From Salegentibacter sp. 24 (GTDB taxonomy: Bacteria > Bacteroidota > Bacteroidia > Flavobacteriales > Flavobacteriaceae), in the NCBI RefSeq assembly GCF_004362395.1, contig NZ_SNWE01000012.1:1-64000 (forward strand): DNA of 64,000 nt. The letters run 5' to 3'. Of the stretch, positions 29 through 16,701 are shown piece after piece. The position numbers were made by a program, and so were the translations under genes. The first letter of the stretch is position 1; every line of letters starts with the position of its first letter. A model generated the notes under the pieces. It had not been told where the DNA came from, made no database searches, and saw only the letters and a program-made list of their open reading frames with translations.

Positions 29-92
29 AATACAGTAAAATTAAGGTTATTTTTGAACTTAACTTACTGTCCTAATTTTTGGGGGATGATCA
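1..92 (-). mobile_element. End of an IS3-family insertion sequence (partial)
   Basis: The minus strand from 92 downward begins TGATCATCCCCC, followed by an AAAATTAGGACAGT stretch. This resembles the terminal inverted repeats of the IS3 subgroup (TGATC..CCC..GGACA). About 50 bases further in, an open frame starts with a peptide typical of IS3 OrfA. The element continues beyond the left window edge, so its size, second end and target duplication cannot be seen. It has inserted into the patatin-like gene, whose reading frame stops on the TGA of the element's first bases. Family assignment rests on the terminus pattern and nine residues only. Confidence 0.65.
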
Positions 93-488
93 AATTGAAA
101 AACCACAACCTAATAAAATGGCTGCGATTCCTCCTGCAGAGGTTCCCGTATACCATGTAAATTTATAATGTTTGGAAAGAACTTCTAATGCACCTACATA
201 AGCTAACCCCTTTATCCCACCGCCTTTCATTATAAGAACAAGTTCATTATAATCTATAGTATCTGGTATGGATTCGCCGGAAATTTTTTGGCAATGCTTG
301 ATTTCAGATAATAAAAGATTATACAATCGATTTGTTAAATGTGGATCATTATATATTTCATCCTTTTCCTCCACCCATTTATGCCCAAAAAAGGTATAAT
401 CTTTACTGCTTTTCCATTGAACTTTTGTATTTTGATGGAATTCAATAACGAGAGATTGAAAAACTTGTATTCTATCTTTCTTAGTCAA
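93..488 (-). pseudogene. Patatin-like phospholipase, C-terminus removed by IS insertion
   Basis: About 132 codons survive. The oxyanion-hole motif GGGIKG is near residue 89 and the nucleophile elbow GTSAG near residue 115, the two hallmarks of patatin-family lipid acyl hydrolases (Ser-Asp dyad). The frame then runs into the IS3 terminus and stops at once, so the half carrying the catalytic Asp is gone and the product should be inactive. The only plausible start is a TTG at 488-486, overlapping the stop of the upstream 125-residue gene by 8 bases, which suggests translational coupling. In-frame stops lie just upstream of it. In defence operons patatins act as membrane-degrading effectors; here that is inference from the gene layout. 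Confidence 0.75.
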
Positions 489-858
489 TGGAGCCTGATA
501 ATTTCTTCTGAATCAAACAATAATACGGAACTATATTCACGTCCTTTATATCTTTCTTCTCTCCCCAAAGTGTAGAGACTTCATCTGGAATTTCTTTATA
601 ATCTTCAAAATCGGAACCTATCTTAACTCCATCGAAATCTAGAATCCTATAAATAATCTTTAAAATTTCGTACTCTTCCATAATCATAAAGGAAGTATTA
701 ATATCCTCAAATGAAAATTGATATCTATCAGAATAAAAATAATCCATAGTTATTGCTCTCTGATTCGGATGTTTAAAGAACCAGTCTAAAATAGCCTCAA
801 AAATTTGAGAATATTCTGGAAACTCTCTAGCTAAATTCTGCAATTTTCTTTCGTACAT
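481..858 (-). CDS. Unknown 125-residue protein, middle gene of patatin operon
   Basis: I do not recognise a family. The protein is acidic, with aromatic-rich helices (residues about 15-60) and a C-terminal part containing a WGEKKD stretch. It starts at an ATG inside the last 32 bases of the upstream 347-residue gene and ends 8 bases into the patatin gene, so all three are probably made from one mRNA by coupled translation. No signal peptide or membrane segment is visible. It may be an adaptor or regulator of the patatin, or a separately encoded N-terminal domain of it; neither can be decided from sequence. Confidence 0.6.
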   Translation of the reverse strand: MYERKLQNLAREFPEYSQIFEAILDWFFKHPNQRAITMDYFYSDRYQFSFEDINTSFMIMEEYEILKIIYRILDFDGVKIGSDFEDYKEIPDEVSTLWGEKKDIKDVNIVPYYCLIQKKLSGSID

Positions 859-1870
859 AATTATACTCCTCTGGACTAATTTTCGAAGTAATTATTATTT
901 CATTAATATCATTTTTTCCAAAAATAACATTTACATCTCTACTTAATGCATCACCGGATCCTTCTTTTAAAAACTGAATTGCTAAACTATTAGCTTTCCC
1001 ATTTGAATTAAGATATGCATCAACAGCCTCTTTTCTTGAAGAATTAGAGAGAAGATCTAACTCATCTTCTCCATTTGTATTTATTGTAGCTTGTCCACTA
1101 TGAGAATCAAGTAGTTTTACTCCAAGCAATTTATAAATATTCCGATTAGAATTCCAATTAACTAAAATTTTATGGATAGTTTGAGATAAGTCTTTTTTAG
1201 TAAAGTCACGCTGAATAAAAACAGCAGGTGCTATTAAATGTTCAAGCTTTCTTCTTGTATCTAAGACACTTGCTGTTGAATCAGAAGAAGTTCTACTTAA
1301 TTTTAATTCTAAAAATTTAGAATCCCATTGCGCCATTAAAATTAACCTAAAAGGTTTTTCCTTATAGACAAGATGTGTGAAACCTGTAGATTCCTCTACC
1401 CATTCATCCTCTCTAACCCGTCTAATTTTTTTATCATATAACTTAACCAACCAAGAGTCCTCTTGCCCCCTATTTGGTGTTCGAAAATCAACCCATTCAA
1501 CTCCACTACTCGGCATATCCATTATTTTAGGGAATTTAGAACGGATATTTTGGGATATGAGCTTATTTGCTATTGCCTCTCCGTCGCTATAATCGGCCTC
1601 ATCAATACCTGAAATTGTACGATATATGTAAATATACTGATCTCCGAATTCCTCTGAATCCTTAACTAAGGATTGTACTTCTGTAATATCAATAATTTTT
1701 TCCTCAACACATCCTAAAAGGCTTTCAACAAGTTCAGGTTTATTTCCACTAAGTTTGATTTTATCTTTGTGGTCTTCCTTATATTTTTTCAAAAGTTCAT
1801 GAATATCCTTAGATAAAACTAATTTAGATTCGAGAATATCAGCATAACTATCCTTTTGTTGTTGGTTCAT
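827..1870 (-). CDS. Unknown 347-residue protein, first gene of patatin operon
   Basis: No family recognised. The sequence is soluble-looking and charged, with a helical N-terminal third (about 1-110), a probably alpha/beta middle (about 120-240) and a polar C-terminal third. It is the promoter-proximal gene of a three-gene overlapping set that ends in a patatin-like phospholipase. Position and the absence of a known enzymatic motif fit a sensor or specificity role for the phospholipase effector, but that is inference. The ATG start at 1870 follows a 217-base AT-rich gap. Base composition is clearly more AT-rich than the core genes to the right. Confidence 0.65.
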   Translation of the reverse strand: MNQQQKDSYADILESKLVLSKDIHELLKKYKEDHKDKIKLSGNKPELVESLLGCVEEKIIDITEVQSLVKDSEEFGDQYIYIYRTISGIDEADYSDGEAIANKLISQNIRSKFPKIMDMPSSGVEWVDFRTPNRGQEDSWLVKLYDKKIRRVREDEWVEESTGFTHLVYKEKPFRLILMAQWDSKFLELKLSRTSSDSTASVLDTRRKLEHLIAPAVFIQRDFTKKDLSQTIHKILVNWNSNRNIYKLLGVKLLDSHSGQATINTNGEDELDLLSNSSRKEAVDAYLNSNGKANSLAIQFLKEGSGDALSRDVNVIFGKNDINEIIITSKISPEEYNYVRKKIAEFS

Positions 1871-2087
1871 ATATTCTAAAGTTAATAAGAATCCTTAAAT
1901 TTTAAGCTATTATTATCTATCAAATATATAAATAAGTTAAACATCAAAGAAACAATACAATTTAAAGCAGATTTTCAGTTATAAAATTAATTAACTTTAT
2001 TAGTCGTACCCAAATAGAAAGAAAAAAAGTCTTACATCTCTGGAACGCTTGATTTTATTGGTGTTCCCACCTATATAATACCCTCTG

Positions 2088-3104
2088 TCATGGTTTGTGT
2101 TTCCTTCTATACATTTCCACAACATCCAAATGCTTATGATGTAATATTAAGTGATTCTCAAGAGAACATTCAATATAGCCAGTTTCTGATTCATCAAAAT
2201 GCTCCGGTAATGGTTTGTATTTTTCCATCAATTCATCATAGAAATTGTCAAGCTTTATAAAATAATCCAGTACATATTCATAGCCTGAGAAATCAATGGT
2301 AAGCTTAATATTATTGATCTTATAAATCACGCAAAGATCTTTACGCCATTCTCTAGGAAACTGAAAATTAATAGTTCCGTTATGATCTTTTCTATTTTCC
2401 AAAAACCAAATTAATTTTTCACGTTCTGAAGTTGTTTGGTGATAAGTAATGAGTGCATCTGCAGCATATTCTGTTTTAGATTTTAAATTATATATATTAT
2501 TGATCTGATTAGTCAGACCGAATGCTTTACTGTATAATTTATAATCAAAACATTCAAATGGTCCTAATTGATCAATGACACTTCTTAAATAATTGAATTT
2601 ATCATACCATTCAATAAGATCATCTAAAAATATTTTAATTTTAAAGTCTGATAAGTCTGATAGCATTGTATTTAAATGCTGCTCTATTAAAGTATATTCA
2701 GTACTTGCCTTAAAAGTTACTTTTTCATCCTTGCAAAAGCTAAATCCTAAATCAATTTTTTTGTCAAGATCTGCGAAATTGTTCAGTTTATTGCAAATAC
2801 AAATATCAGATACGGTTTTATCATCTTTACTTTCAATGAACAAATCTATATAATATCCTGATTTAGAGAGAAATGTTACTCCTTCACAACCTATATTACA
2901 AGAACCACATATTCCAAAGAAAACATCATCAAAAAAATGACAACCATCTTTTCTTGCATTTTTAAACTTCTTTTTTAATTTTTTAAGAAAAAGTGATTTT
3001 GTAACATCCATATAGGAAATATCATCATCGAGAATTTCATCAAGTGTCTTGATATCAAAGTTTTTAATAGCTTGTGTAATTTGATATATTGAATTATTAT
3101 TCAT
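2088..3104 (-). CDS. Unknown 338-residue cysteine-containing protein
   Basis: No family recognised. A cysteine cluster reading CGSCNIGC lies near residues 66-73 with a further CIC near residue 101, which could bind a metal, although no complete zinc-finger pattern is evident. The remainder is acidic, helical and rich in Phe/Tyr/Asp, and the C-terminus carries several histidines. No signal peptide or membrane helix is seen. It stands alone between two multi-gene operons of the same orientation, with gaps of 217 and 325 bases, and its leader contains two overlapping hairpins. Confidence 0.6.
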   Translation of the reverse strand: MNNNSIYQITQAIKNFDIKTLDEILDDDISYMDVTKSLFLKKLKKKFKNARKDGCHFFDDVFFGICGSCNIGCEGVTFLSKSGYYIDLFIESKDDKTVSDICICNKLNNFADLDKKIDLGFSFCKDEKVTFKASTEYTLIEQHLNTMLSDLSDFKIKIFLDDLIEWYDKFNYLRSVIDQLGPFECFDYKLYSKAFGLTNQINNIYNLKSKTEYAADALITYHQTTSEREKLIWFLENRKDHNGTINFQFPREWRKDLCVIYKINNIKLTIDFSGYEYVLDYFIKLDNFYDELMEKYKPLPEHFDESETGYIECSLENHLILHHKHLDVVEMYRRKHKP

Positions 3105-3429: not shown

Positions 3430-4980
3430 TTATTCAAAAATTTTTAATGCCCTTTCTGCATTTTTCTTCAACTTTCCGCTTTTAGTTTCATATTCATCTA
3501 TTTCTTTTAAGCAGGAAATAACCAAATCTTGCGTTATTAGATTTTCTTTAGTTTCTTTTGACTTTATAGTAGCCACAATTTTATTCAAAAATGTCTTTCC
3601 TCCAATGTTTTTTTTGAAATCTTGAAAGGTGAAACCATAATTGGCTTCCTGCTCCTTTGCTATATCTATCTCGTTATCTTTTGGTTCGGTAAATAACTCT
3701 AAAGGAAGACTTGCTGACTCTGCTTTATTATTCTCTTTTGACTCAACTATTGTTTTTTCGTCATATTTATCTTTTTCAACTGAAAGCTTGATGTCCATTG
3801 TCTCTTCCTTTTCTATTTTATTACTGCTTTGATTTGGAATTAAATTATCATCTTTTATCGTTTCATCACATTCAGTATTAGTTTTTTCTGTTTTAGGCTC
3901 CCCAAACACTTGATGGTCCATGACTTTTGGATTCCATTCTAAGTCTAAATTCTTATGAGTTTTTAGTAAGGCACTTTTTGAAAAAGATTGAATTGATTTT
4001 GAAATGGTTTGTATTGAAAAAGTATACCCTAACATAAATAGAACTTTTGACGCTGCATCGGAATCGTTTTGTTTCAATTCAAGAATATCCTTCTTTGGAG
4101 CTGATATATCATAATTGTTTTTTTCAATTTCTTTCTTTAGATAGTAAAAAAAACTAAAAAGTAAGAAAGCATTATCATATTTTCCATTTTCGGATAGAGT
4201 TCTTGTAAGATCATCAAATTTTGATTTAGCATCTTCACTAAACTCAATTTTATCTTTTATAAAATTGATGGCCTCAAATAATGTTTTACTATTAATTGCA
4301 GTTTTCTCATTATTCACAAAGCTATAAAAAGTGCTTCTTGTAATCTGATCAACCTCCTTATTTAGCTTCTTCAAGCCCACACACGCAGATTTTATTATTG
4401 CTTCAATATTTCCTTCAGGAATAAAGCTCGGAGTAACATTGAAATCAATTAGATGTGCTAGCGTAGAATCATTTTCACTCACTTCAATATTGTTTAATTG
4501 AAATAATGTGGCTGTTTTGAAATCATTTATAAATTCTTCATTAGGAAAAGAAAGATCATAGATTGAGCAAAGTTTTCGACTAGCTCGAATTCGTAATAAG
4601 TGATTTCGATTATCTTGAAAGGACCTGAAAAGTTTTGAATCTAAAGGGCCTAAAATATTAAAATTAGTATTCAACTTTGATGATAGTAATCTTGCCCCCA
4701 TTTCCGTTAAGGGAATAATTGATAAGATTCCGTTGAACTCAATTACTGGAGCATTATCATATGAAACTAACATAGGGTCATATTCCATTAAGATTACTTC
4801 GTGATCTTGCTCAAAAATGGGAAGCGATTTCTGCAAAAGTGATATCTTCTGTTCTTCTCCTAAATTTTTAAAATCGTTATAAGAGAAATTGATTATTCTT
4901 TCTGGAGATATCCTTGTAGAATCATAATTAATCAAATAATTTAATTCTGAACGTTGTAAGACGATAGTTATATTTTTCAT
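3430..4980 (-). CDS. Unknown 516-residue protein, last gene of the AlkB-Hsp70-helicase operon
   Basis: No family recognised. Residues about 1-330 look like a folded helical domain with an N-terminal alpha/beta start; about 345-440 is a low-complexity, strongly charged Lys/Glu/Asn/Ser linker; about 445-516 is a short basic helical domain ending in ERALKIFE. There is no signal peptide, membrane segment or obvious catalytic motif. The ATG lies 11 bases after the stop of the SF1 helicase, so it is almost certainly cotranscribed and is a candidate partner, nuclease-like or specificity subunit. Its AT content is extreme even for this island. Confidence 0.65.
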   Translation of the reverse strand: MKNITIVLQRSELNYLINYDSTRISPERIINFSYNDFKNLGEEQKISLLQKSLPIFEQDHEVILMEYDPMLVSYDNAPVIEFNGILSIIPLTEMGARLLSSKLNTNFNILGPLDSKLFRSFQDNRNHLLRIRASRKLCSIYDLSFPNEEFINDFKTATLFQLNNIEVSENDSTLAHLIDFNVTPSFIPEGNIEAIIKSACVGLKKLNKEVDQITRSTFYSFVNNEKTAINSKTLFEAINFIKDKIEFSEDAKSKFDDLTRTLSENGKYDNAFLLFSFFYYLKKEIEKNNYDISAPKKDILELKQNDSDAASKVLFMLGYTFSIQTISKSIQSFSKSALLKTHKNLDLEWNPKVMDHQVFGEPKTEKTNTECDETIKDDNLIPNQSSNKIEKEETMDIKLSVEKDKYDEKTIVESKENNKAESASLPLELFTEPKDNEIDIAKEQEANYGFTFQDFKKNIGGKTFLNKIVATIKSKETKENLITQDLVISCLKEIDEYETKSGKLKKNAERALKIFE

Positions 4981-4991
4981 CTATATATTAT

Positions 4992-6167
4992 TTAAAAAAC
5001 GACCTCGTCGTTATCATTTTTTGATTCATTTATTTGTCTAGCAGGAGTGCTTTTAAGAAAACGACTATATCCTGAGTACATTTTACCTGTGAATGTTATT
5101 AGCAAGTCTCTTTTAGCCCTAGACAAAGCTACCAGGATCAACGCATCTTCATTATCAGAACTTCCCAAATCAGCTTGAATATTGGGTAGTGCAACGGCAT
5201 CAAAGTCCAACCCTTTGGAAGAATGGTAGGTCATTATTACAATTTTGTTCTGACTATCTGCTTGCTCAAGTGAACCAATTTTGCTACCAACATACATCAA
5301 AGGAATGCCTTGATTACTTAAATGACTGTTCATAGCTGCAAAATCTTTACTATCTACATCATATTCGGGGTAAACTCCGTTTGACCATTTTTTCTTTCCT
5401 TCAAGTTCTAAAATAGTATCCACATAATTTATAATATCTTTTTTCATAAAAAACAAAACTGCATTAACTTCACCAGGTCTATCCTTATTAATTTGTTTAA
5501 GTTCGTGCCAAGAAAACTCTATCTCCTCGCGATAGTTCTCAGCTTTGAATAATCTAATTTCGGAATCCTCTCGACCTATGTGTACCATATCTGCAAAGAG
5601 ATTCTTATAAACATTTCTCAGTACGCCAATAATCGTTCTAGTCAAACGATATATAGTTGTAGTTGTTTTTTGCTCCGGATCTAATTGTGCTACAATTTCT
5701 TCTTTTGTTGCAGGCCTCTCATTAAAATTAGGTACAGAAGAATAAATTGATTGTGCTGCATCCCCAGCAATTATTAATTGATTGCTTCCAGCTTTCATTC
5801 TTTCTAAAAGGATCGTTGGGATATCTTGTATCTCGTCACAGAAAATAGCATCAAATTTTTCACCTCTAAAAAGACGTCCATTAACGTCATATATAGTTAC
5901 TACAGGAATTGTAGTATTTCTTAAAGCTGGAATCTGCCTTAAACCAGATGACAGTAAATCAATCAAAGCGTGAGTAAACACTACAACTACAACTTTTGCC
6001 TGCGGATTGCGAATTATATAATCGGTCAATGCGTGTAAGAGTACTATTGATTTACCCGACCCTGCGTGACCCTGTATCCAAACAGGTTGGCCATTTATAT
6101 CTTGTAAGTCATCAATTATTTCTCTCTGCTCAGGACCAAGCCTGGCTTCTTCGATCATCCACTTCAT
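4992..6167 (-). CDS. Compact superfamily 1 (UvrD/Rep-like) DNA helicase
   Basis: Visible motifs in order: a Q-like LGPEQREI (10-17), Walker A GHAGSGKS (33-40), Walker B FCDEIQDI (109-116), motif III IIAGDAAQSIY (132-142), motif V with HSSKGLDFD (315-323) and motif VI VALSRAKRDLLI (346-357). These define an ATP-driven SF1 helicase, but at 391 residues it lacks most of the 1B/2B insertions of UvrD or Rep (about 700 residues), as in small helicases of defence operons. The gene starts 38 bases inside the 3' end of the Hsp70-like gene and is followed after 11 bases by the 516-residue gene. It probably unwinds or translocates on nucleic acid for this module. Confidence 0.85.
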   Translation of the reverse strand: MKWMIEEARLGPEQREIIDDLQDINGQPVWIQGHAGSGKSIVLLHALTDYIIRNPQAKVVVVVFTHALIDLLSSGLRQIPALRNTTIPVVTIYDVNGRLFRGEKFDAIFCDEIQDIPTILLERMKAGSNQLIIAGDAAQSIYSSVPNFNERPATKEEIVAQLDPEQKTTTTIYRLTRTIIGVLRNVYKNLFADMVHIGREDSEIRLFKAENYREEIEFSWHELKQINKDRPGEVNAVLFFMKKDIINYVDTILELEGKKKWSNGVYPEYDVDSKDFAAMNSHLSNQGIPLMYVGSKIGSLEQADSQNKIVIMTYHSSKGLDFDAVALPNIQADLGSSDNEDALILVALSRAKRDLLITFTGKMYSGYSRFLKSTPARQINESKNDNDEVVF

Positions 6168-8670
6168 ATTGTTTTTTCTTTTTAATTAAGGGTTTTAGTC
6201 TAATAATTGAGGAATCAGTGACTAGATCACACACAACTCTTGATTCTTGATTTATTTTCAGAATAATTTTTATTGCATTATAATATTCCTTCCAGTTAAA
6301 GTAGATGCTTTCATTTGTGATTTCAGAATAAAGTTCTGTTGAATTTAGGTCATCATCAACGTTTAGCTCGTATTCTAAACTAGGAAGTACTTCCCCCTTT
6401 CTAAAGACCGGTTTTTGCTTTCCATCCTCAACAATATGAATATTTCCATTCAGCACAGATTCAATAATCTGTTTGCCAAAAGCATTAGATACAAATGATT
6501 GTATTGCATTTCCAACACCCACCTGCTCCTGACTATTATTTGGCATAATTATCTTTGAAACATCAAAATAGGTAGCGCATAAGGATCTTAAATAAGGATT
6601 CTTAGCTCCACCACCAGATATTATAATATAATCAAGATCACTGTTTTTTAACTCAGCACTTAAAAGTGTTTTCTCAATATTGTCCCTAAATCCTTTAAAC
6701 TTTTCGCTCCCATTAAAGTAATCTTCCATTATCTCATTAAACTCGGAATAAGCCAATTGAAGATAACCACCGTTTTCATAAGCTGAAATTTGGCAATTCT
6801 TGTATTGTTCAGAATAAGCTAGTTTAGGTAAAGTATAATCTACTTTAGCATCTGCCAAAAACGATCTACAAAATTGAAGTTTTATTTCTTCGCAATCTTT
6901 TAAAACAAAATCGTCATTTATTGTAATTTGATTATCTTTTTCATAAAGTCTATTGGCAATCAGTTTATTAATTAAATTACCTCCTATGTTTTTATTTCTA
7001 TAGATAGATAGTGTTTCTGCCAGAACGTTATCAGAATCCTTTGTTAACCTGATAGCACAACAATCAACAGTACCGGCTCCAACATCAATAACCAGAATAT
7101 TTAGATCTTTTTCTAGGTCTAAAGCTAAATTTTCTTGGTAAATAGTTCCAAGCAATGATGATACTGGCTCCTCTACAAAGGAAAATGTTCCTTGCTCAAA
7201 TCCAGCATTGATAATGTAACTTTCCAGTAATTCCTTCTCTTTTAATCCATAATTTCCGGGAGTGCTAAAGGAAAATCGCTTCTCTAAAGGCAATCCTTTT
7301 TTGATTACAAGCCTGTCAATCTCGCTTTTCAATCTTTTAAAGAAAACAATAAGGGCATCTGCACCGTTATTAATTTGTAAAGATGGATGGTTAAATAATC
7401 TAGATTCGGGAAATATTTGATCATTTAGATTCAGTATATTCTCTTTAAACCCATACCATCCATCTTGTCCGAAAGTAAATTGATGCCTTCTCTCTTGAGC
7501 ATATTTGCCCAGTAAAAACTGTTTTCCGACGATACCCATTATTGATGGAACTATTGTACTACTAGATTTTGATCCCAAATGATCTTTTTGATCAATTTCC
7601 AGCAGTTCCACTTTAAGAGAACCATCTTGAACGAAAGCAATAGAACATACAGAGCTAGAGGTTCCAAAATCTACTCCAATAAATGAGCGGTCGGTTAGAT
7701 TTTGTGCTATTCCGTTTATTTTTCTTAATGGATGGTAGATGGCATTAATGCCAATGCGTTCGATTTTTTCTTCTTCTTTTTGTAAGCAGTTCTTGCTTAA
7801 TAACGAAAAATCGTATTTCAGATTTTTACGAGGTATCAGACCATCAGTGTAGTTTAGTAAATTATCTCTAACAATTTGAGAAGGTCTATGATTAATAGAA
7901 GTCATAGCAGAAGGGCTTCTATTTTCTGATGTTGTTGCTTTTTTTAAGTTTCGAAAATGGCTTTCTAATAACTGTTCTAAATGAGCGATTTTTGATCTTA
8001 CACTTGTGGTTAAGTCTACCATCAACAGCGAAGAAAAGTCCGGTAACATTCTAAAAATATCAAGAACATTTTCTTCTAAAACTGCATAATCTGTTCTAGC
8101 TATCTCATTAATGCAATTTTGGATTACAACGATATCCGATTTCTTAAAAAGGTAAGCATTTGAATGTATGGAATTTCTATCTACTAGATCAAATTGGTGA
8201 CTATTCCATTTTACAGATATATCTTTATAACGATTCAGCTCCGGGAGTAAAAACCCAATTAAGGCTGAATGGCTATAATCCCAAGTTCTGGAGTTTAAGT
8301 CTAAAATTTCAATGGATATGTTTTTTATATTAGGACAGTATTCAAGAATATATTTTATAGTTCCGTAAGCTTCAGATCCTGGTCCTCCACCAATAAACAA
8401 AGCAGTAAAATCTGTCTTAGATTTCATTATTTGTAATTCCTGCTCTAATAATATTTTAAATATGAGCTGGTAATAATGTGGTAAATAAGTTATTAAGTAT
8501 GCACTTTGAATATTCTGTAGCGCATAATTCACATAAACAGGTGGCGGTTTTCGATAAGAAGCTCGTAATTGCTTTACATCAGTTTTAAGTGATTGCAAAT
8601 AAGCTTTTATTTCTAAAGGCTCATCATTTAAATCATTTATGGCTTCAACAATTTGATCGTAAACACTCAT
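6130..8670 (-). CDS. Chimeric SAM-methyltransferase-like and Hsp70/actin-fold ATPase
   Basis: Two modules are readable in this 846-residue protein. Residues about 85-260 resemble a class I SAM-dependent methyltransferase: glycine-rich motif I FIGGGPGSEA (near 91), an acidic strand end IEILDLN (near 120), and a VVIQNCINEI strand reminiscent of Rsm22-like enzymes. From about 328 it is an Hsp70/actin-fold ATPase: phosphate-1 loop GVDFGTSSS (near 330), phosphate-2 VIDVGAGTVDC (near 525) and adenosine motif IISGGGAKN (near 680). The last 150 residues lack a recognisable Hsp70 lid. The ATG overlaps the dioxygenase stop (ATGA). Whether the first domain truly methylates anything is unproven. I know no characterised protein with this arrangement. 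Confidence 0.8.
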   Translation of the reverse strand: MSVYDQIVEAINDLNDEPLEIKAYLQSLKTDVKQLRASYRKPPPVYVNYALQNIQSAYLITYLPHYYQLIFKILLEQELQIMKSKTDFTALFIGGGPGSEAYGTIKYILEYCPNIKNISIEILDLNSRTWDYSHSALIGFLLPELNRYKDISVKWNSHQFDLVDRNSIHSNAYLFKKSDIVVIQNCINEIARTDYAVLEENVLDIFRMLPDFSSLLMVDLTTSVRSKIAHLEQLLESHFRNLKKATTSENRSPSAMTSINHRPSQIVRDNLLNYTDGLIPRKNLKYDFSLLSKNCLQKEEEKIERIGINAIYHPLRKINGIAQNLTDRSFIGVDFGTSSSVCSIAFVQDGSLKVELLEIDQKDHLGSKSSSTIVPSIMGIVGKQFLLGKYAQERRHQFTFGQDGWYGFKENILNLNDQIFPESRLFNHPSLQINNGADALIVFFKRLKSEIDRLVIKKGLPLEKRFSFSTPGNYGLKEKELLESYIINAGFEQGTFSFVEEPVSSLLGTIYQENLALDLEKDLNILVIDVGAGTVDCCAIRLTKDSDNVLAETLSIYRNKNIGGNLINKLIANRLYEKDNQITINDDFVLKDCEEIKLQFCRSFLADAKVDYTLPKLAYSEQYKNCQISAYENGGYLQLAYSEFNEIMEDYFNGSEKFKGFRDNIEKTLLSAELKNSDLDYIIISGGGAKNPYLRSLCATYFDVSKIIMPNNSQEQVGVGNAIQSFVSNAFGKQIIESVLNGNIHIVEDGKQKPVFRKGEVLPSLEYELNVDDDLNSTELYSEITNESIYFNWKEYYNAIKIILKINQESRVVCDLVTDSSIIRLKPLIKKKKQYEVDDRRSQAWS

Positions 8671-9290
8671 TCGCTTACGATGGTTCTAAATGTTAGATTG
8701 ATCCGAGGGTCTAATATCCTTTTCTGTACAGGAATTTGATGTAACCAATTATGCTGTAATGCACCTTTCATAATGACTAATGATCCCGGAACCAATTCCA
8801 GCTGTAGTTTTTCTTTAGGATCAGTTTTATGTTTTAAATCAAAACGCCTTGTTGCTCCTAAACTTACAGATGCGATTAAGGGGTTCGTTCCTAATCCTTT
8901 TTCATCATCTGCGTGCCAGCTAACTTTGTCACTTCCATTTCGATAGAGATTTAATAGAACACTATTAAAATCTGAGTCAGGCAAAAAGCTTTCAATAACT
9001 CTTTTGATACCCAGTAATTCTTTCGTCCAAGGTTCTGGATTACAAAAAATCCCTGAATATTTATAATTAAACCCTTCATACCCATACCAAGCAGTTTTTC
9101 GAGGTACTGGAAAAGTTTTTCCGTACATCTTAATTTCCTCTTGTCTCCAGTTAATATTCTCAACAAAATTTTTAAAATAACTATTAGCCTTGTCTGGGGG
9201 AATAAAATTCTCCATATACCAAACCTCGCCATCCTTTAGGTTTATCTTCTGAAACTCCCTTTTTTTTGGAACTTGATTGAATAAATCCAT
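8667..9290 (-). CDS. AlkB/ABH2-like Fe(II)/2-oxoglutarate dioxygenase
   Basis: This 207-residue protein has the AlkB-family signature: metal ligands His126-Ala-Asp128 in WHADDE, His184 in NWLHQIP, and the 2-oxoglutarate arginines in PRINLTFR (Arg196, Arg202). The NLYRNGSDKVSWHADD segment and PR.NLTFR are closest in style to the ABH2/ABH3 branch, which oxidatively removes methyl lesions from DNA or RNA bases. It is the first gene of a tightly overlapping four-gene operon with a methyltransferase/Hsp70-like chimera, a helicase and an unknown protein, an unusual setting for a repair enzyme. The start is the ATG at 9290; no strong -7 box is obvious upstream. Confidence 0.85.
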   Translation of the reverse strand: MDLFNQVPKKREFQKINLKDGEVWYMENFIPPDKANSYFKNFVENINWRQEEIKMYGKTFPVPRKTAWYGYEGFNYKYSGIFCNPEPWTKELLGIKRVIESFLPDSDFNSVLLNLYRNGSDKVSWHADDEKGLGTNPLIASVSLGATRRFDLKHKTDPKEKLQLELVPGSLVIMKGALQHNWLHQIPVQKRILDPRINLTFRTIVSE

Positions 9291-9524
9291 AAAAACACAA
9301 TTAAATTTTATTCAGTGGAAAATTTAGAATTACAAAGTAGAAATTTTCAACCACATACTCCTCCAGAATTTGTCATTTTAAGAAAACATATCCTGTTATT
9401 ATTGGTGAAGGTATAAGAATACATATAGAGAAGCTGACAAAATCTTATTTTGGCTGATTGCTGATAAGATAAATATGAAGCAAGAAAAGTTGAGAAAGAT
9501 GGACCAATGGGACCGCTGAAAAAA

Positions 9525-9545
9525 ATGTTGTACCTATGTTGTACC
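9525..9545. repeat. Tandem direct repeat ATGTTGTACC, possible attachment-site element
   Basis: Two perfect 10-base copies (9525-9534, 9536-9545) are separated by one base, an 11-base period. They sit 50 bases beyond the tRNA-Asn 3' end, at the visible edge of the accessory island. Such helically phased repeats can be recombinase or repressor binding sites. No integrase gene is in the window to support it, so function is inference. Confidence 0.4.
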
Positions 9546-9548
9546 CAG

Positions 9549-9584
9549 TAAAAAAACAAAGCCATTCAATTTCTTGAATGGCTT
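9549..9584. terminator. Hairpin terminator after tRNA-Asn
   Basis: AAGCCATTCAA (9559-9569) pairs perfectly with TTGAATGGCTT (9574-9584) around a four-base loop. On the minus strand, the direction of the tRNA, it is followed by a T-rich tract complementary to 9549-9556; on the plus strand GTTTTT follows, so it could work both ways. Confidence 0.8.
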
Positions 9585-9596
9585 GTTTTTACTAAG

Positions 9597-9670
9597 CTCC
9601 CCCTCTTGGGCTCGAACCAAGGACCCTCTGATTAACAGTCAGATGCTCTAACCAACTGAGCTAAGGAGGA
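9597..9670 (-). tRNA. tRNA-Asn (GTT)
   Basis: The minus strand folds as a complete cloverleaf: acceptor TCCTCCT (9670-9664) with AGGGGGA (9604-9598), D arm GCTC..., anticodon arm CTGAC-TGTTAAT with anticodon GTT, and a T arm with GGTTCGAGC. The discriminator is G at 9597, normal for tRNA-Asn. No CCA is encoded. It lies alone between the core gene rseP and the accessory island, with its 3' end facing the island, and is followed by a hairpin terminator. Confidence 0.95.
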
Positions 9671-9778
9671 GTGTTTCGCTCTTTTGCGGTTGCAAATATA
9701 AACCAAATTTTAAATCACAACAAAACAAAAATTGAATTTTTTTTAGTTTTTTTCTTTCAAAAATTCCCTCAGATTCTA

Positions 9779-11095
9779 TCACTCGAATAACCAACGATAT
9801 ACATCATTCCCATTGGCATAGAGCACCAATGCGATCAAGATGAAAAAACCAACCATTTGTGCAACTTCCATAAATTTATCGTTCGGTTTTCTTCCGGTTA
9901 CCATTTCATATAACAGGAACATCACATGACCGCCATCTAAAGCCGGAATAGGCAAGATATTCATAAACGCAAGAATTATTGAAATCAACGCTGTGGTATG
10001 CCAGAACCCTTTCCAGTTCCAGGTATCGGGAAACATATCACCAATAGCACCAAACCCACCGAGTTGTGTAGCTCCCTTCTGAGTAAAGACGTATTTAAAC
10101 TGGGCCACATAATCGTGTAATGTCCAGTAACCATAATCGAAACCAGCCTTTATACTTTCAATGAATCCATATTCTTGTTGCTTTATTTGAAAATTTCGTT
10201 TTACCGAAAAACCAAGAATTCCGTCCTCATTTGGTTTAACCATGATGCTTTTAATTTCATCGCCCCGTTTAAAGACCAATTCCAATTCCTTATCTTTGTT
10301 TTCTTGTATAATAGCCCTTGCTTCATGCCAATAACCAACCTCCTGCTCATTCAGTGCGATTATGCTATCTCCCTTTTTTAGTCCGGCAATTCCGGCCGCC
10401 ATATCTGGAACTACACTATCCAATACCGCATTTTGGATAGGAATGAAAGGCAACATAACTCCTTTTTCCCACATTTGTTCCCCGATATTTCCAGGAACCT
10501 CGATAACTTCCTCTTCTCCGTTTTGATGCAGAACGGTAATACTATTTACATCTCGCATAAATAAGTAACGATTCACATCATCACTGTTTTTAAGCTCTTC
10601 TCCGTTAATTTCTAAAACACGGTCACCATCTTCAAAACCATATTGCTTAAATTCTTCAGCAATTGCAAAACCTGCGGGCATTTCATCCGGGCCCACGTAA
10701 TTTTTTCCCCAAACGAACATAATCATCATATAAATAAGAAAACCAAGAACCAGGTTAACAGTCACCCCTCCAAGCATAATTATAAGTCGCTGCCAGGCCG
10801 GTTTACTCCTGAATTCCCAAGGCTCAGGTGGTTTTGCCATTTGCTCCTTATCCATACTCTCGTCAATCATCCCCGAAATTTTCACATAACCGCCCAGTGG
10901 CAACCACCCAATTCCATAAACAGTTCCGCCAATTTTCTTCTTAAATAGCGCGAATTTAACATCAAAAAATAGAAAGAATTTTTCTACTCTGGTTTTAAAT
11001 AATTTTGCAGGAATAAAATGCCCAAGTTCATGTAAAACTATAAGTAAGGACAAGCTTAACAGTAATTGTATGGCTTTAACTATAAATGGATCCAT
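9779..11095 (-). CDS. rseP: RseP-type site-2 membrane metalloprotease
   Basis: An intramembrane zinc protease of the M50 family that cleaves membrane-anchored anti-sigma factors and remnant signal peptides. HELGH (residues 22-26) in the first membrane helix gives two zinc ligands, and NILPIPALDGGH near the C-terminus supplies the LDG ligand motif. Two PDZ-like segments lie between (EINGEELKNSDD and the later KKGDSIIALN). The frame is open 10 codons further up to 11125, but a -7 box at 11130-11123 puts the mRNA start near 11116, so the ATG at 11095 (MDPFIVKA, 438 residues) is chosen. It stands alone after tRNA-Asn. Confidence 0.92.
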   Translation of the reverse strand: MDPFIVKAIQLLLSLSLLIVLHELGHFIPAKLFKTRVEKFFLFFDVKFALFKKKIGGTVYGIGWLPLGGYVKISGMIDESMDKEQMAKPPEPWEFRSKPAWQRLIIMLGGVTVNLVLGFLIYMMIMFVWGKNYVGPDEMPAGFAIAEEFKQYGFEDGDRVLEINGEELKNSDDVNRYLFMRDVNSITVLHQNGEEEVIEVPGNIGEQMWEKGVMLPFIPIQNAVLDSVVPDMAAGIAGLKKGDSIIALNEQEVGYWHEARAIIQENKDKELELVFKRGDEIKSIMVKPNEDGILGFSVKRNFQIKQQEYGFIESIKAGFDYGYWTLHDYVAQFKYVFTQKGATQLGGFGAIGDMFPDTWNWKGFWHTTALISIILAFMNILPIPALDGGHVMFLLYEMVTGRKPNDKFMEVAQMVGFFILIALVLYANGNDVYRWLFE

Positions 11096-11122
11096 TGGTA
11101 ATGCTTCAAATTTTAAATCGCA

Positions 11123-11130
11123 CAAAAGTA
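11123..11130 (-). promoter_or_regulatory. -7 promoter box of rseP
   Basis: The minus strand reads TACTTTTG, matching the Bacteroidetes sigma-A consensus TAnnTTTG. Transcription would start about seven bases downstream, between the two candidate rseP start codons, which decides for the ATG at 11095. Confidence 0.6.
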
Positions 11131-11224
11131 ATCTTTTAAAATCTCCTATAAAAGTTTAAAGGACTCCTGTTTGAGCAAACTGAAATTTTAAGTTTTATAC
11201 TGTGACTATTTGATAGCTACCCCT

Positions 11225-11232
11225 TAATTTTG
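11225..11232 (+). promoter_or_regulatory. Possible -7 box of the Sco-like gene
   Basis: TAATTTTG matches TAnnTTTG. It is 85 bases ahead of the Sco-like ATG, so the leader would be about 80 bases. No clear -33 TTTG at the right distance, so moderate support only. Confidence 0.4.
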
Positions 11233-11317
11233 CATTTAGCTTTCTGGAGTTTTTTTAAAAAATTACCGCGTTAAAAAAATTGAAAATTTCTTTAAAAGCG
11301 CGGGTAAATTTAATAGT

Positions 11318-11989
11318 ATGCGTAATCTTTTTGCCTGGCTCAAGAAATTTGCCATTGTATTGTTTATTCTTTCAGTAATAATTGTCTATTGTATTTATAG
11401 TCTTTTAAAACCTGAAGAACGTCTACCGGTGTTTCAGCCGGATATGGTGAACGCTGAACTTGTTGATTCTACGGTGCGTTACGTTAGAAAGTACCATACG
11501 GTTAAGGATTTTGAGCTTTTCAATCAAAATGGTGATACGATTTCCCAAGAAGATTATAAGGATAAAATTTATGTAGCAGATTTTTTCTTCACCACATGTC
11601 TTACTATTTGCCCTGTAATGACGGATCACATGCTGAAAATTCAAGAAAAAATTAAGGATGATCCTGAAGTATTATTACTCTCGCATACCGTTTTTCCAAA
11701 AACCGATTCAGTTCCAGTTCTAAAAAATTATGCTGAAAAAAAAGGTGTAATCGATGAAAAATGGAACCTTGTTACCGGTAGTAAGAAGGAAATCTACAAC
11801 TTGGCCAGAAAATCTTATCTCGCTACCAAAAGTAATGGAGATGGCGGGCCTTATGATATGATTCATACCGAAAATTTTGTTCTAGTTGATAAAGAAAAAC
11901 GTATTCGCGGTTTTTATGACGGAACAGATCCTGAAGCTATAGAAGATCTGATGCACGACATAAAAGTGTTAAAAGCAGAATACGAGTAA
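11318..11989 (+). CDS. Sco1/SenC-family copper chaperone
   Basis: A membrane-anchored thioredoxin-fold protein that delivers copper to cytochrome c oxidase or keeps its cysteines reduced. One membrane helix spans residues about 10-30; the copper-binding CLTIC gives Cys94 and Cys98 (CxxxC), and His183 in MIHTENFVLVD is the likely third ligand. Length (223) is normal for the family. It stands before feoAB with a 123-base gap containing a separate feo promoter, so it is likely its own transcript. The neighbourhood is metal-related throughout. Confidence 0.88.
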   Translation: MRNLFAWLKKFAIVLFILSVIIVYCIYSLLKPEERLPVFQPDMVNAELVDSTVRYVRKYHTVKDFELFNQNGDTISQEDYKDKIYVADFFFTTCLTICPVMTDHMLKIQEKIKDDPEVLLLSHTVFPKTDSVPVLKNYAEKKGVIDEKWNLVTGSKKEIYNLARKSYLATKSNGDGGPYDMIHTENFVLVDKEKRIRGFYDGTDPEAIEDLMHDIKVLKAEYE

Positions 11990-12077
11990 AAATTTTTCAT
12001 ATCCCTGAATTGTGCAAAGTATTTATTGAACAAATCTACTTTTTCCATTGAAATTTTTTCCTGCTAAAATTTTACCT

Positions 12078-12085
12078 TACTTTTG
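12078..12085 (+). promoter_or_regulatory. -7 promoter box of feoAB
   Basis: TACTTTTG matches TAnnTTTG and lies 28 bases before the feoA GTG codon, giving a short leader. Just downstream (12091-12107) is an imperfect inverted repeat TTTAAA-N5-TCTAAA resembling the DtxR-like operator at 16677. Confidence 0.55.
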
Positions 12086-12090
12086 TCTTG

Positions 12091-12107
12091 TTTAAAATCA
12101 ATCTAAA
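12091..12107. promoter_or_regulatory. Weak candidate metalloregulator half-site in the feo leader
   Basis: TTTAAA (12091-12096) and TCTAAA (12102-12107) flank five bases; the right half AATCTAAA is identical to the right half of the operator at 16677-16692. The left arm has one mismatch and the spacer is one base longer. It overlaps the expected transcription start of feoA, a good place for iron-dependent repression. Confidence 0.35.
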
Positions 12108-12112
12108 TAAAA

Positions 12113-12343
12113 GTGAAACTAACCCTGGCCGATTTAAAACGTGGTGAACGTGGAATTATCAAGGATTTTTCGGAAGAAAATATTCCCTTAAAATTACTTG
12201 AAATGGGTTGCTTGCCGGGTAATGAAGTTCAAATGCTTCAAATGGCTCCCTTTAAAGATCCCATGTATCTAAACATAAACGGGAGCCATCTGGCCATTCG
12301 AAAAGAAATCGCTTTACTTATAGAAATTGACCTCATAAGCTAA
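12113..12343 (+). CDS. feoA: FeoA ferrous iron transport protein
   Basis: A 76-residue SH3-like FeoA domain, cytosolic accessory of the FeoB ferrous iron transporter. Typical features are LADLKRGERGII near the N-terminus, a LLEMGCLPGNEV core and a terminal AIRKEIALLIEI strand. The start is GTG at 12113, fitting the family's usual beginning. It ends one base before the feoB ATG, so the two are translationally linked. Confidence 0.92.
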   Translation: MKLTLADLKRGERGIIKDFSEENIPLKLLEMGCLPGNEVQMLQMAPFKDPMYLNINGSHLAIRKEIALLIEIDLIS

Positions 12344-12344
12344 A

Positions 12345-14447
12345 ATGGCTAAACAAATAAATGTCGCTTTAATAGGAAATCCCAACACAGGTAAGACTTC
12401 TGTTTTCAATCAACTCACAGGCCTTAATCAAAAAGTGGGAAATTACCCCGGGATTACGGTTGAAAAAAAAGAAGGAGTTTGCAAACTTCCTCGCGGCTTA
12501 AAAGCGCATATTTTAGATCTCCCCGGCACTTACAGCTTAAACGCTTCTTCTTTAGATGAAAATGTTGTGATCGAATTATTGCTGAATAAAAGCGATAAAG
12601 ATTATCCTGATGTTGCCGTGGTTATTAGTGACGTAGAGAATCTTAAACGGAACCTGTTACTTTTTACTCAAATTAAAGATCTTGGTATTCCAACAATCCT
12701 GGTCATAAATATGGCCGATAGGATGGAGCGCAAGGGTATTTTTCTGGATGTAGATTTGTTAGAAGACCGTTTAAAAACAAAAGTTACTTTAGTAAGTGCC
12801 AGAAAAAACACTGGAATTGATGAATTAAAGGAAGCAATTATCAATTATCGCCATATTTCAAATGAACCTTGTTTAAATGCCTCGATAATCGCCCCTGAAT
12901 ATTTTGATAGGCTTAGCAAAGCTTTCCCAAACCAATCACTTTATAAACTTTGGTTAGTAATTACACAAGATGTAAATTTTGGTAACATTAACCGCAATGA
13001 AATCGACAATTCTGGTCGATTCGATACTAAATCTCATCCAGAACTAAAGAAACTACAGCATAAGGAAACCATTTTAAGATATCAATTTATTAATGGAGTT
13101 TTAAAAGAAACAATGAAGGTTGATACAAGTTCTGCAAAAGACCTTCGTTCTCGTTTAGATCGCGTTCTAACTCATAAAGTTTGGGGCTATGTTATATTCT
13201 TCGGCATACTTTTATTAATTTTTCAAGCAATTTATAGTTGGTCCAGTTATCCAATGGATCTTATAGATGAAACTTTCGCATTTCTAAGCGAATGGACCAA
13301 AACAACTTTTCCTGCAGGAGCTTTTACAAATCTTATCGCTGAAGGAATTGTTCCTGGTCTTGGTGGAATCGTAATTTTTATTCCCCAAATCGCTTTCCTT
13401 TTTTTCTTTATTTCGATTTTAGAAGAAACCGGATATATGAGTCGTGTAGTGTTTTTAATGGATCGAGTTATGCGAAAATTTGGTCTTAGCGGAAAAAGCG
13501 TTGTTCCCCTAGTGTCAGGAACCGCCTGCGCCATTCCCGCCGTTATGGCTACCAGGAATATTGAAAGTTGGAAAGAACGTCTAATCACTATTTTAGTTGT
13601 TCCATTCACAACATGTTCCGCACGCTTACCTGTTTACTTAATAATAATTGCGCTGGTAATCCCTGATCGGGCAGTTTGGGGTTTTAACCTTCAGGGGCTT
13701 ACTTTGATGCTGCTTTATCTTTTAGGTTTTGGGGTTGCCATTGGTTCTGCTTGGATTTTAAACGCCATTCTAAAAATTAAAAATCGAACCCATTTTGTAA
13801 TTGAAATGCCTAACTACAAAATGCCAATGGGGAAAAACATTGCTATAAATGTTATAGAAAAAACTAAATCATTTGTTTTCGGTGCCGGAAAAATAATTCT
13901 AGCTATTTCAATTATTTTATGGGTTCTGGCAAGTTATGGCCCTGGAGAAAACTTTAGTAAGGCCGAAGAAATTGTTACATCAGAAGTTTCGGGAAATGAA
14001 GAGATTTCAGAAGATGAATTGGATGAAAAGATCGCTTCCTTTAAATTAAGAAACTCTTATATTGGCATTATGGGAAGAGGTATTGAACCAATTGTGGCGC
14101 CATTAGGTTACGATTGGAAAATTGGAATTGCAATCATCAGCTCTTTTGCTGCCCGTGAAGTTTTTGTAGGCACTTTAGCTACAATTTATAGTGTAGGAAG
14201 CGATGAAGAGGAAACTATTAAAAACCGAATGGCTGCAGAAATAAATCCAATTTTGGGTGGGCCCCTATTTACTTTTGCCAGTGGAGTCAGCCTATTGTTG
14301 TTTTATGCGTTTGCCATGCAATGCATGAGTACTTTGGCCATTGTCAAGAAAGAAACAAATACCTGGAAGTGGCCGATCTTACAATTAGTGGTTATGACCT
14401 TATTTGCCTACTTAGTAGCTTTGCTGGCCTTCCAATTATTAAAATAA
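12345..14447 (+). CDS. feoB: FeoB ferrous iron transporter
   Basis: A 700-residue GTPase-coupled Fe(II) permease of the inner membrane. The N-terminal G domain shows GNPNTGKT (11-18), DLPG near 58, NMAD (G4) near 122 and an SARK motif (G5). The membrane part begins near residue 275 and includes the conserved gate sequences SGTACAIPAVMATR and LPVYLIIIAL. The length is close to E. coli FeoB. It is cotranscribed with feoA and followed by a tiny Cys-rich partner gene. An iron-dependent repressor is encoded 1.5 kb downstream. Confidence 0.95.
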   Translation: MAKQINVALIGNPNTGKTSVFNQLTGLNQKVGNYPGITVEKKEGVCKLPRGLKAHILDLPGTYSLNASSLDENVVIELLLNKSDKDYPDVAVVISDVENLKRNLLLFTQIKDLGIPTILVINMADRMERKGIFLDVDLLEDRLKTKVTLVSARKNTGIDELKEAIINYRHISNEPCLNASIIAPEYFDRLSKAFPNQSLYKLWLVITQDVNFGNINRNEIDNSGRFDTKSHPELKKLQHKETILRYQFINGVLKETMKVDTSSAKDLRSRLDRVLTHKVWGYVIFFGILLLIFQAIYSWSSYPMDLIDETFAFLSEWTKTTFPAGAFTNLIAEGIVPGLGGIVIFIPQIAFLFFFISILEETGYMSRVVFLMDRVMRKFGLSGKSVVPLVSGTACAIPAVMATRNIESWKERLITILVVPFTTCSARLPVYLIIIALVIPDRAVWGFNLQGLTLMLLYLLGFGVAIGSAWILNAILKIKNRTHFVIEMPNYKMPMGKNIAINVIEKTKSFVFGAGKIILAISIILWVLASYGPGENFSKAEEIVTSEVSGNEEISEDELDEKIASFKLRNSYIGIMGRGIEPIVAPLGYDWKIGIAIISSFAAREVFVGTLATIYSVGSDEEETIKNRMAAEINPILGGPLFTFASGVSLLLFYAFAMQCMSTLAIVKKETNTWKWPILQLVVMTLFAYLVALLAFQLLK

Positions 14448-14483
14448 TTGTAAGTTTAACATTAAAAAACGACTTAAAATAAT

Positions 14484-15967: not shown

Positions 15968-15968
15968 T

Positions 15969-16692: not shown

Positions 16693-16701
16693 TTTTATTT
16701 A

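What the first reader, a model, noticed from the sequence alone, without database searches (positions are those of the whole stretch)
3430..9290. Four-gene operon: AlkB-like dioxygenase, methyltransferase-like/Hsp70 chimera, compact SF1 helicase, unknown 516-residue protein
The genes are coupled (ATGA overlap, 38-base overlap, 11-base gap), AT-rich, island-borne, and next to another defence-like cassette. The mix of base demethylase, putative methyltransferase, chaperone-fold ATPase and helicase is one I do not recall as a described defence or repair system. A working model is sensing or remodelling of modified foreign nucleic acid with the ATPase as switch.
Basis: partly seen in the sequence, partly recalled or inferred. 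Interest (0 to 1): 0.88.

Follow-up and report, generated by a model that had tools for sequence, protein, structure and literature searches.

The report
AlkB–methyltransferase pair in helicase operon
On a mobile DNA island that also carries a known immune system, a bacterium has a conserved four-gene set that pairs a DNA/RNA demethylase with a methyltransferase-like domain, a chaperone-type ATPase and a helicase; it may be an undescribed way of using base methylation against invading genetic elements.

Summary
The four genes are real and at the stated coordinates. All four recur in the same order in one other genome found, an uncultured Flavobacteriaceae (56-89% identity). No named system matches the set.

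The operon joins two modules that also exist apart. Module A: AlkB plus a methyltransferase-like (MT) gene. Ten MT-family loci were opened; all ten lie beside AlkB (7) or DUF1848, a radical-SAM-type enzyme (3), including plasmids of three cyanobacterial genera. Module B: Hsp70 ATPase, compact UvrD-like helicase, fast-evolving third protein; found without module A in four places. In the window MT is fused to Hsp70. In another genome AlkB precedes an unrelated MT-type domain fused to a RecQ-like helicase.

The operon is one end of an island in tRNA-Asn (51-bp repeat, unoccupied site in a relative); the other end carries BREX. Some relatives lie beside MADS, Hma, CRISPR or restriction-modification genes; others show no such company.

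A defence role is likely (about 0.75). The mechanism is inferred: MT marks invading nucleic acid opened by the helicase, AlkB protects the host. Repair and mark stripping remain live rivals. Structure prediction failed.

The parts
8667..9290 (-). AlkB-like Fe(II)/2OG dioxygenase, 207 aa, ALKBH2/3-like, first gene of the operon
   Evidence: PF13532 7.5e-33; nearest solved structures ALKBH3 2.3e-35 and ALKBH2 1.7e-32; HxD and RxNxTxR present; 88.8% identical in L031
7771..8670 (-). MT domain (about residues 1-300 of the 846-aa protein), putative SAM-dependent methyltransferase; module A with AlkB
   Evidence: free-standing homologues next to AlkB or DUF1848 in 8 other loci; invariant G94, G96, E100, D124, Q184, N185, N188 in eight sequences; remote Rsm22 match
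6451..7695 (-). Hsp70/DnaK-type ATPase domain (about residues 326-740), followed by about 100 residues; module B
   Evidence: PF00012 1.1e-8; phosphate and adenosine motifs at 332, 527, 685; homologues in L032, L033, L034
4992..6167 (-). compact SF1 (UvrD/PcrA-type) helicase, 391 aa; module B
   Evidence: PF13361 9.7e-11 and PF00580 3.3e-9; profile matches PcrA 4.7e-24, UvrD, GajB in PDB; 81.8% identical in L031
3430..4980 (-). p516, fast-evolving protein of unknown fold with acidic linker; module B third gene
   Evidence: no family match; 55.6% identical in L031; hhalign 80.7% over residues 7-267 to the third genes of L032/L108; AlphaFold2 unusable, pLDDT 35.6
9588..9638 (.). 51-bp exact direct repeat (att-like), includes the last 43 bases of tRNA-Asn; second copy at G000:C30:5286-5336
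   Evidence: unoccupied arrangement in G928
9596..9670 (-). tRNA-Asn (gtt), integration site of the island
   Evidence: ARAGORN

Best explanation
A mobile, defence-island operon made by joining two modules. Module B (Hsp70-like ATPase, compact SF1 helicase, variable 516-aa protein) would recognise and open invading nucleic acid, with Hsp70 as an ATP-driven assembly switch. Module A supplies the chemistry: the MT domain, carried on the Hsp70 protein, would write a damaging methyl mark on bases in single strands exposed by the helicase, and the separate AlkB, first in the operon, would erase that mark from host nucleic acid; an effector with an antidote, comparable in logic to DarTG (recalled). 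Shown: gene order, conservation, modularity, island, catalytic motifs of AlkB, Hsp70 and helicase. Inferred: the defence role (about 0.75), methyltransferase activity, the substrate, and who protects whom. The confidence given is for the whole mechanism.
For: Ten of ten opened MT-family loci adjoin AlkB (7) or DUF1848 (3); in G742 a methylpurine-DNA glycosylase follows (PF02245 1.9e-60), so canonical lesion-repair enzymes gather round MT. MT is joined to the machine (fused to Hsp70 in the window and L031; next to an SF1 helicase in G733/G763) while the eraser is a separate gene. Parallel case: in G468 AlkB precedes an MT-type domain fused to a DpdF/RecQ-like helicase, between ZacA/ZacB homologues and a BrxB gene. 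Defence company: BREX on the same island, MADS beside L031, Hma beside the Picosynechococcus pair and type II R-M beside G828, cas1/cas2 near the Synechocystis pair. Patchy: MT profile in 5 of 395 and 4 of 245 genomes (one of the latter is an Rsm22 protein). Low dN/dS in all four genes.
Against: MT activity is not shown; sequence support for the methyltransferase fold is remote and varies with the sequences used (3.0-88.9%), and no PDB chain matches convincingly (best 0.025). Several MT loci (G742, G733, G763, G662, Planktothrix) showed no clear named defence system in the stretches read (not all scanned). The AlkB-MT-glycosylase operon of G742 looks like repair. Only two genomes have the complete set. 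The G468 MT-type domain is not detectably related to the window's (0.1%) and 7 of 7 other loci found with that protein have no AlkB in the stretches read. No effector nuclease is evident.
Confidence: 0.38

Rival explanations
1. Alkylation-repair operon: AlkB reverses alkylation damage on single strands opened by the helicase, as ALKBH3 works with the ASCC3 helicase (recalled), with MT and Hsp70 as accessories; the defence company is just the usual mixed cargo of islands.
For: AlkB nearest to ALKBH3/ALKBH2; helicase in the operon; AlkB-MT-methylpurine glycosylase in G742.
Against: The host has a second AlkB elsewhere; of 29 AlkB loci examined only 1 is followed by a methyltransferase-type gene, so the pairing is not a normal repair arrangement; island, plasmid and defence-island settings; the MT gene has no role in this model; DUF1848 replaces AlkB in three loci.
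Confidence: 0.2
2. Mark-stripping counter-evasion module: AlkB (or DUF1848) removes protective base modifications from invading DNA and MT re-marks it, so that neighbouring methylation-based systems (BREX, MADS, Hma, R-M) can attack.
For: Most named neighbours are methylation-based: BREX, MADS, Hma, type I, II and IIG R-M. A jumbo-phage survey proposed that sporadic AlkB-like enzymes reset methyl marks in conflict (passage in PMC7824862).
Against: ALKBH2/3-like enzymes act on m1A/m3C rather than m6A (recalled). Such neighbours are common in any defence island; no association test against a background was made. Module A also occurs without a named defence neighbour in the stretches read.
Confidence: 0.15
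3. Sequential hypermodification, as in ALKBH8: MT adds a methyl group and AlkB or the radical-SAM enzyme oxidises or elaborates it, on tRNA or DNA, giving the host a protective or regulatory mark.
For: MT and AlkB/DUF1848 act as neighbours in ten of ten loci; ALKBH8 joins an AlkB and a methyltransferase domain (recalled); the remote MT relative is of the rRNA/mitoribosome-linked Rsm22 family.
Against: AlkB here is nearest to the demethylases ALKBH3/2 in the PDB search, ALKBH8 not among the 16 sequences listed; does not explain helicase, Hsp70 or the glycosylase.
Confidence: 0.12
4. Loose assembly: the two modules are independent systems that happen to share a promoter; the fusion has no common function.
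For: Each module occurs without the other; the complete set was found in two genomes only.
Against: In-frame fusion of MT to Hsp70 kept with low dN/dS in both genomes; MT next to an SF1 helicase also in G733/G763 and a different MT-type domain fused to a helicase in G468; the ATGA coupling is kept in both.
Confidence: 0.1

Closest known systems
Hsp70-containing type III-A CoCoNuT (passages read in PMC11090510)
   Same: Hsp70-like ATPase and an SF1 helicase in one predicted defence operon
   Different: CoCoNuTs are built on an McrB GTPase and McrC with a UPF1-like CnuH and HEPN effector; none of these is in the window operon, whose helicase is UvrD-like, and CoCoNuTs as described there have no AlkB
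BREX, DISARM, Hma (methyltransferase + helicase + ATPase defence)
   Same: methyltransferase-like protein with a helicase and another ATPase on a defence island
   Different: MT here is of another family (no PglX, DrmM or HmaB match); no PglZ or BrxC in the operon; an AlkB eraser is added
DarTG toxin-antitoxin (recalled)
   Same: proposed logic: writer of a nucleic-acid lesion with its own eraser
   Different: DarTG uses ADP-ribosylation and a macrodomain; no sequence relation claimed
ALKBH8 and ALKBH3-ASCC3 (recalled)
   Same: AlkB dioxygenase working with a methyltransferase domain or with a helicase
   Different: eukaryotic tRNA modification or repair; no Hsp70, no mobile island
Gabija GajB (PADLOC GajB 8.9e-16)
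   Same: helicase of the UvrD type
   Different: no GajA nuclease in the operon; the helicase lies closest to PcrA/UvrD in the PDB search

Membership tests
AlkB family (ALKBH2/3-like) | 2OG-Fe(II) fold with HxD...H and RxNxTxR motifs | tested here: met
   PF13532 7.5e-33; motifs; ALKBH3 2.3e-35
AlkB family (ALKBH2/3-like) | demethylates m1A/m3C in nucleic acid | not testable with these tools
   needs biochemistry
Class I SAM methyltransferase | Rossmann-type SAM site | tested here: inconclusive
   G-x-G-P and acidic positions invariant; Rsm22 match 88.9% with all sequences, 3.0-77.9% with subsets; PDB best 0.025; AlphaFold2 failed
Hsp70 family | actin-type ATPase with phosphate-1, phosphate-2 and adenosine motifs | tested here: met
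   PF00012 1.1e-8; motifs at 332, 527, 685
SF1 UvrD-type helicase | motifs I, II (DExQD), III, V, VI | tested here: met
CoCoNuT | McrB-type GTPase and McrC homologue | tested here: not met
   no such match among the four proteins in Pfam, PADLOC, NCBIfam
Gabija | GajA OLD-family nuclease beside GajB | tested here: not met
   no GajA match in the 8 proteins scanned (best 25 rows per protein shown)
BREX / DISARM / Hma / MADS | signature proteins (PglZ, BrxC; DrmA/B; HmaA-C; mad genes) in the operon itself | tested here: not met
   no such match for the non-helicase proteins of the operon; for the helicase 25 of 43 PADLOC rows were shown, none of these. BREX lies at the other end of the island
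PADLOC candidate PDC-M61 | PDC-M61B together with its partner | tested here: not met
   only a weak M61B match of the Hsp70 part (6.4e-6); no other M61 model among rows shown
Anti-phage defence system | protects the host from phage or plasmid | not testable with these tools
   only context evidence

The most novel reading that the evidence does not exclude
A portable immune chemistry: a base methyltransferase and its own eraser (AlkB, or the radical-SAM-type DUF1848) form a two-gene cartridge that has been attached repeatedly to different helicase-driven defence operons (Hsp70-SF1-p516 here, an SF1 operon in G733/G763, and by analogy, with an unrelated MT-type domain, a RecQ-like helicase in G468). 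It damages invading nucleic acid with an AlkB-reversible methyl lesion while the eraser keeps the host clean: an immune system built on self-reversible alkylation.
Probability: 0.28. Interest if true: 0.92.

Novelty: new variant of a known kind. Interest (0 to 1): 0.72.

Why it matters
Methyltransferases in known defence systems mostly mark self (established knowledge of R-M and BREX). A conserved pairing of a methyltransferase-like protein with an AlkB-type or radical-SAM-type eraser, seen here in Bacteroidota-phylum genomes and cyanobacterial plasmids and joined to helicase operons, suggests that methyl marks could themselves be the weapon, or that marks are erased during immunity. It would give island-borne bacterial AlkB genes a role beyond chemical damage repair, gives a context to the unnamed family DUF1848, and can be tested directly with a two-gene toxicity assay and nucleoside mass spectrometry.

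Tried and rejected
Structure route: AlphaFold2 on the 846-aa protein and on p516, each with only the window and L031 sequences, gave mean pLDDT 33.8 and 35.6, so no fold search was run and no fold claim rests on them.

Viral reservoirs: the MT profile found no relative in viral contigs (79 stretches matched the peptide patterns, 0 confirmed). One faecal phage scaffold matches the helicase at 24%; its record is unannotated and I did not examine its genes.

Dropped or failed: G816 left the MT family because it is an Rsm22 protein (PF09243, 2e-18). The idea that the small 93/102-aa proteins of L046/L047 are the N-terminal domain of p516 was not supported (hhalign 0.8% against p516, 16.2% against its L032/L108 relatives). 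The third genes of L033, L034, L046/L047 and L109 show no detectable homology to p516. One clade for the seven MT-linked AlkBs was not established (2 changes against 6.6 in shuffles, with near-copies in the set; one clade in 4% of bootstrap trees). The G468 MT-type domain is not detectably related to the window's (0.1%), and 7 of 7 other loci found with that protein have no AlkB in the stretches read, so it is an analogy. phmmer with the C30 BREX proteins found nothing in the G468 locus; BrxB there was confirmed with PF08747, its other BREX-like genes only by eye.

Not opened: of the 10 plasmid records with a Synechocystis-type MT three were opened (one Synechocystis, Planktothrix, Picosynechococcus); PCC 7338 and 7339 match in two pieces. 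Anabaena NC_019428.1, an Hsp70 hit, was opened and set aside as a different operon. Persicobacter (H11) was not opened. The MT searches used profiles built first from AlkB-linked members, which may favour them; the DUF1848-linked loci came out all the same.
Full report
OBSERVATION. The four ORFs exist at the stated coordinates on the minus strand, coupled as described. They lie just beyond the 3' end of a tRNA-Asn gene (9596-9670, minus strand). The operon is 32.4% GC, window 9671-64000 is 36.7%. Family scans identify AlkB (PF13532, 7.5e-33), Hsp70 (PF00012, 1.1e-8, residues 520-729 of 846) and a UvrD-type SF1 helicase. The 516-aa protein matches nothing in Pfam, PADLOC, NCBIfam, PHROGs or the PDB at the limits used. 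Single proteins match single PADLOC profiles (AlkB: CARF_2OG 3.7e-50; helicase: GajB 8.9e-16; Hsp70: PDC-M61B 6.4e-6), but no system matches the set.

THE SET IS CONSERVED. A pattern-based scan of the genome-contig collection (close relatives only) with the 846-aa protein found one full-length relative, contig CANNAC010000010.1 of an uncultured Flavobacteriaceae bacterium (L031). There the four genes stand in the same order with the same ATGA overlap. blastp identities: AlkB 88.8%, MT/Hsp70 73.8%, helicase 81.8%, p516 55.6%. NG86 dN and dS: AlkB 0.068/1.80, MT/Hsp70 0.168/1.23, helicase 0.116/1.11, p516 0.274/1.38 (dS near saturation, YN00 failed): purifying selection on all four. In 397 genomes of the window's family, 311 have a match at E <= 0.001, nearly all of those shown being DnaK-type matches to residues of about 520-731; the best other than the window is G226 (1.9e-45, residues 325-764), and G340 has a longer one at 5.2e-6. 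No row shown (list cut at about 6e-5) covers the MT domain except the window's own.

TWO MODULES. Module B, Hsp70 - SF1 helicase - third gene, occurs without AlkB and MT in G226 (L032), G340 (L033), an Antarctobacter plasmid (L034) and G545 (L108, Hsp70 split in two ORFs). In L032-L034 the Hsp70 has a C-terminal tail that the window protein lacks, with TPR matches in L032 and L033 (L034 and L108 not scanned). A helicase profile at E <= 1e-25 rings in 4 of 395 phylum genomes: own, G340, G545, G696. G696 (L109) has the helicase behind XRE-like and ImmA-like genes (by eye) and no Hsp70 gene detected. The third genes diverge fast: p516 matches those of L032/L108 (80.7%, residues 7-267), not those of L033, L034, L046/L047 or L109.

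Module A is AlkB plus MT. In plasmids, tblastn with the 846-aa protein hits 11 records; 8 cover only the MT part (within residues 1-299), on plasmids of Synechocystis (6), Picosynechococcus and Planktothrix. The three opened, one per genus, each have MT directly after an annotated AlkB (L035, L036, L037). An MT profile rings in 5 of 395 phylum genomes and in 4 of 245 genomes of the class of G733, two of them already known. Opening the new ones gave: G742 AlkB-MT-methylpurine glycosylase (PF02245 1.9e-60); G733 and G763 DUF1848-MT-SF1 helicase-small gene-third gene (DUF1848 4.8e-98 in G763; in G733 by sequence likeness); G662 an MT fragment about 240 bases from AlkB; G828 restriction enzyme-Dam-MT-DUF1848 (1.8e-86); G816, dropped as an Rsm22 protein. 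So ten MT-family loci were opened (window, L031, three cyanobacteria, G742, G733, G763, G662, G828): seven adjoin AlkB, three adjoin DUF1848; Planktothrix has both, DUF1848 on the other strand. The DUF1848 sequences printed show C-x3-C-x2-C, the radical-SAM pattern (recalled).

IS ALKB ORDINARILY SO COMPANIONED? Of 148 phylum genomes, 33 have an AlkB like this one at E <= 1e-20. Of 29 loci examined, 10 have a same-strand open frame directly downstream and 1 of these is of methyltransferase type (by eye). That one, G468, has AlkB before a 1499-aa protein with an MT-type N-terminus (Methyltransf_31, 0.0016, below the cut-off) and a helicase (DEAD 2.6e-17; DpdF 4.1e-70). Its MT-type domain is not detectably related to the window's, and 7 of 7 other loci found with its first 540 residues have no AlkB in the stretches read. 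So G468 is a parallel, not a member. It lies between ZacA/ZacB homologues (8.9e-83, 4.5e-146) and a BrxB gene (9.3e-42). In a tree of 37 AlkBs the seven MT-linked ones cluster (2 changes, shuffled mean 6.6, 0 of 500 as low), but near-copies are among them and one clade is not resolved. The host has a second AlkB, 49% identical, on contig C7.

ISLAND. A 51-base stretch (window 9588-9638), which includes the last 43 bases of tRNA-Asn, is repeated exactly at G000:C30:5286-5336, where ARAGORN finds no tRNA. Beside that copy are a tyrosine-recombinase-like ORF (C30 5443-6693, by eye) and BrxA, PglZ, BrxHI, PglXI and BrxC homologues (1.1e-11, 6.4e-46, 1.1e-255, 2.2e-269, 2.5e-175). In the relative G928 (one contig) the two chromosomal flanks lie about 290 bases apart in the matching order (2802254-2804237 and 2804525-2805722). 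So the window operon and a BREX system appear to be the two ends of one tRNA-Asn island; its middle lies across assembly gaps, so this joining is inference.

DEFENCE COMPANY elsewhere: MADS mad7/mad8 upstream of L031 (6.3e-50, 2.5e-41); HmaB/HmaC beside the Picosynechococcus pair (6.8e-74, 6.7e-123); cas1/cas2 about 5 kb upstream on pSYSA; type II R-M beside G828, type I methyltransferase beside G340, type IIG enzyme near G545. No clear named system was seen around G742, G733, G763, G662, G226, the Antarctobacter plasmid or Planktothrix, but their neighbours were not all scanned. No background rate was computed.

MECHANISM. AlkB has the iron and 2OG motifs and is nearest to ALKBH3/ALKBH2 in the PDB, enzymes that remove m1A and m3C (recalled). 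Hsp70 and helicase keep their ATP motifs. MT keeps G94, G96, E100, D124, Q184, N185 and N188 in eight sequences. Its link to methyltransferases is remote: hhalign to one Rsm22 protein gives 88.9% with all eight sequences but 3.0, 25.7 and 77.9% with subsets; the best PDB match is 0.025. That MT is fused or coupled to the ATPase/helicase machine while the eraser is a separate gene, and that once a methylpurine glycosylase joins in, is best explained if MT writes a lesion that such enzymes undo. I give the whole mechanism 0.38 and a defence role of some kind about 0.75; repair, mark stripping, hypermodification and loose assembly are the rivals.

LITERATURE. Ten full-text searches of the held PMC library listed no paper that I recognised from title, abstract start or passages as describing an AlkB-methyltransferase or an Hsp70-UvrD defence operon; this covers only that library, those terms and the listed rows (one search listed 15 of 56). 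Passages were read in PMC11090510, PMC7159879, PMC7824862 and PMC3710099; a term search in the main text of PMC13092281 found none of six terms. Other papers were seen only in listings.

NOVELTY. Each part is of a known kind, and the broad plan (methyltransferase-like protein + ATPase + helicase on a defence island) is that of BREX, DISARM and Hma, but the set fails the membership test of each. The eraser partner is the new element. I rate it a new variant of a known kind, with a new immune chemistry as the bold reading.

Noticed in passing
L114 (G000:C30) 5286-19903: Other end of the island, outside the window: copy of the tRNA-Asn repeat, recombinase-like ORF (by eye) and BREX homologues BrxA, PglZ, BrxHI, PglXI, BrxC.
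   Followed up: yes
window 90-488: Patatin-type phospholipase ORF of 132 aa (PF01734, 2.7e-8) that stops after about 47 of 191 profile positions, 89 bases from the contig end; truncated.
   Followed up: partly
window 481-3104: Three ORFs (125, 347, 338 aa) between the patatin fragment and the operon, same strand, without a convincing family match.
   Followed up: no
L155 5647-11388 (G468:C4): AlkB, then a 1499-aa MT-type/DpdF-like helicase fusion, then a coiled-coil-like protein, between ZacA/ZacB homologues and a BrxB gene: a parallel design with another helicase.
   Followed up: yes
L170, L171, L172, L173 (G511, G579, G675, G721): Large proteins (1269-1471 aa) related to the G468 helicase, each followed by another ORF that looks coiled-coil by eye, without AlkB: an uncharacterised two-gene arrangement.
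   Followed up: partly
L045 8335-10442 (G742): AlkB-MT-methylpurine glycosylase apparent operon among ordinary chromosomal-looking genes.
   Followed up: partly
L109 6879-10746 (G696): XRE-like and ImmA-like genes (by eye), then a relative of the window helicase and a 640-aa protein: another context for this helicase, without Hsp70.
   Followed up: partly
L101 7835-11446 (G828): Type II restriction enzyme, Dam-type methyltransferase, a divergent MT and DUF1848 in a row, same strand.
   Followed up: partly
L108 5788-8229 (G545): Module-B Hsp70 gene split into two ORFs, by mutation or assembly error.
   Followed up: no
G925:C118:163773-163817 and 120049-121764: In another genome of the genus a 45-base exact copy of the tRNA-Asn 3' part lies about 42 kb from the tRNA region, so this tRNA may be a recurrent island site.
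   Followed up: no
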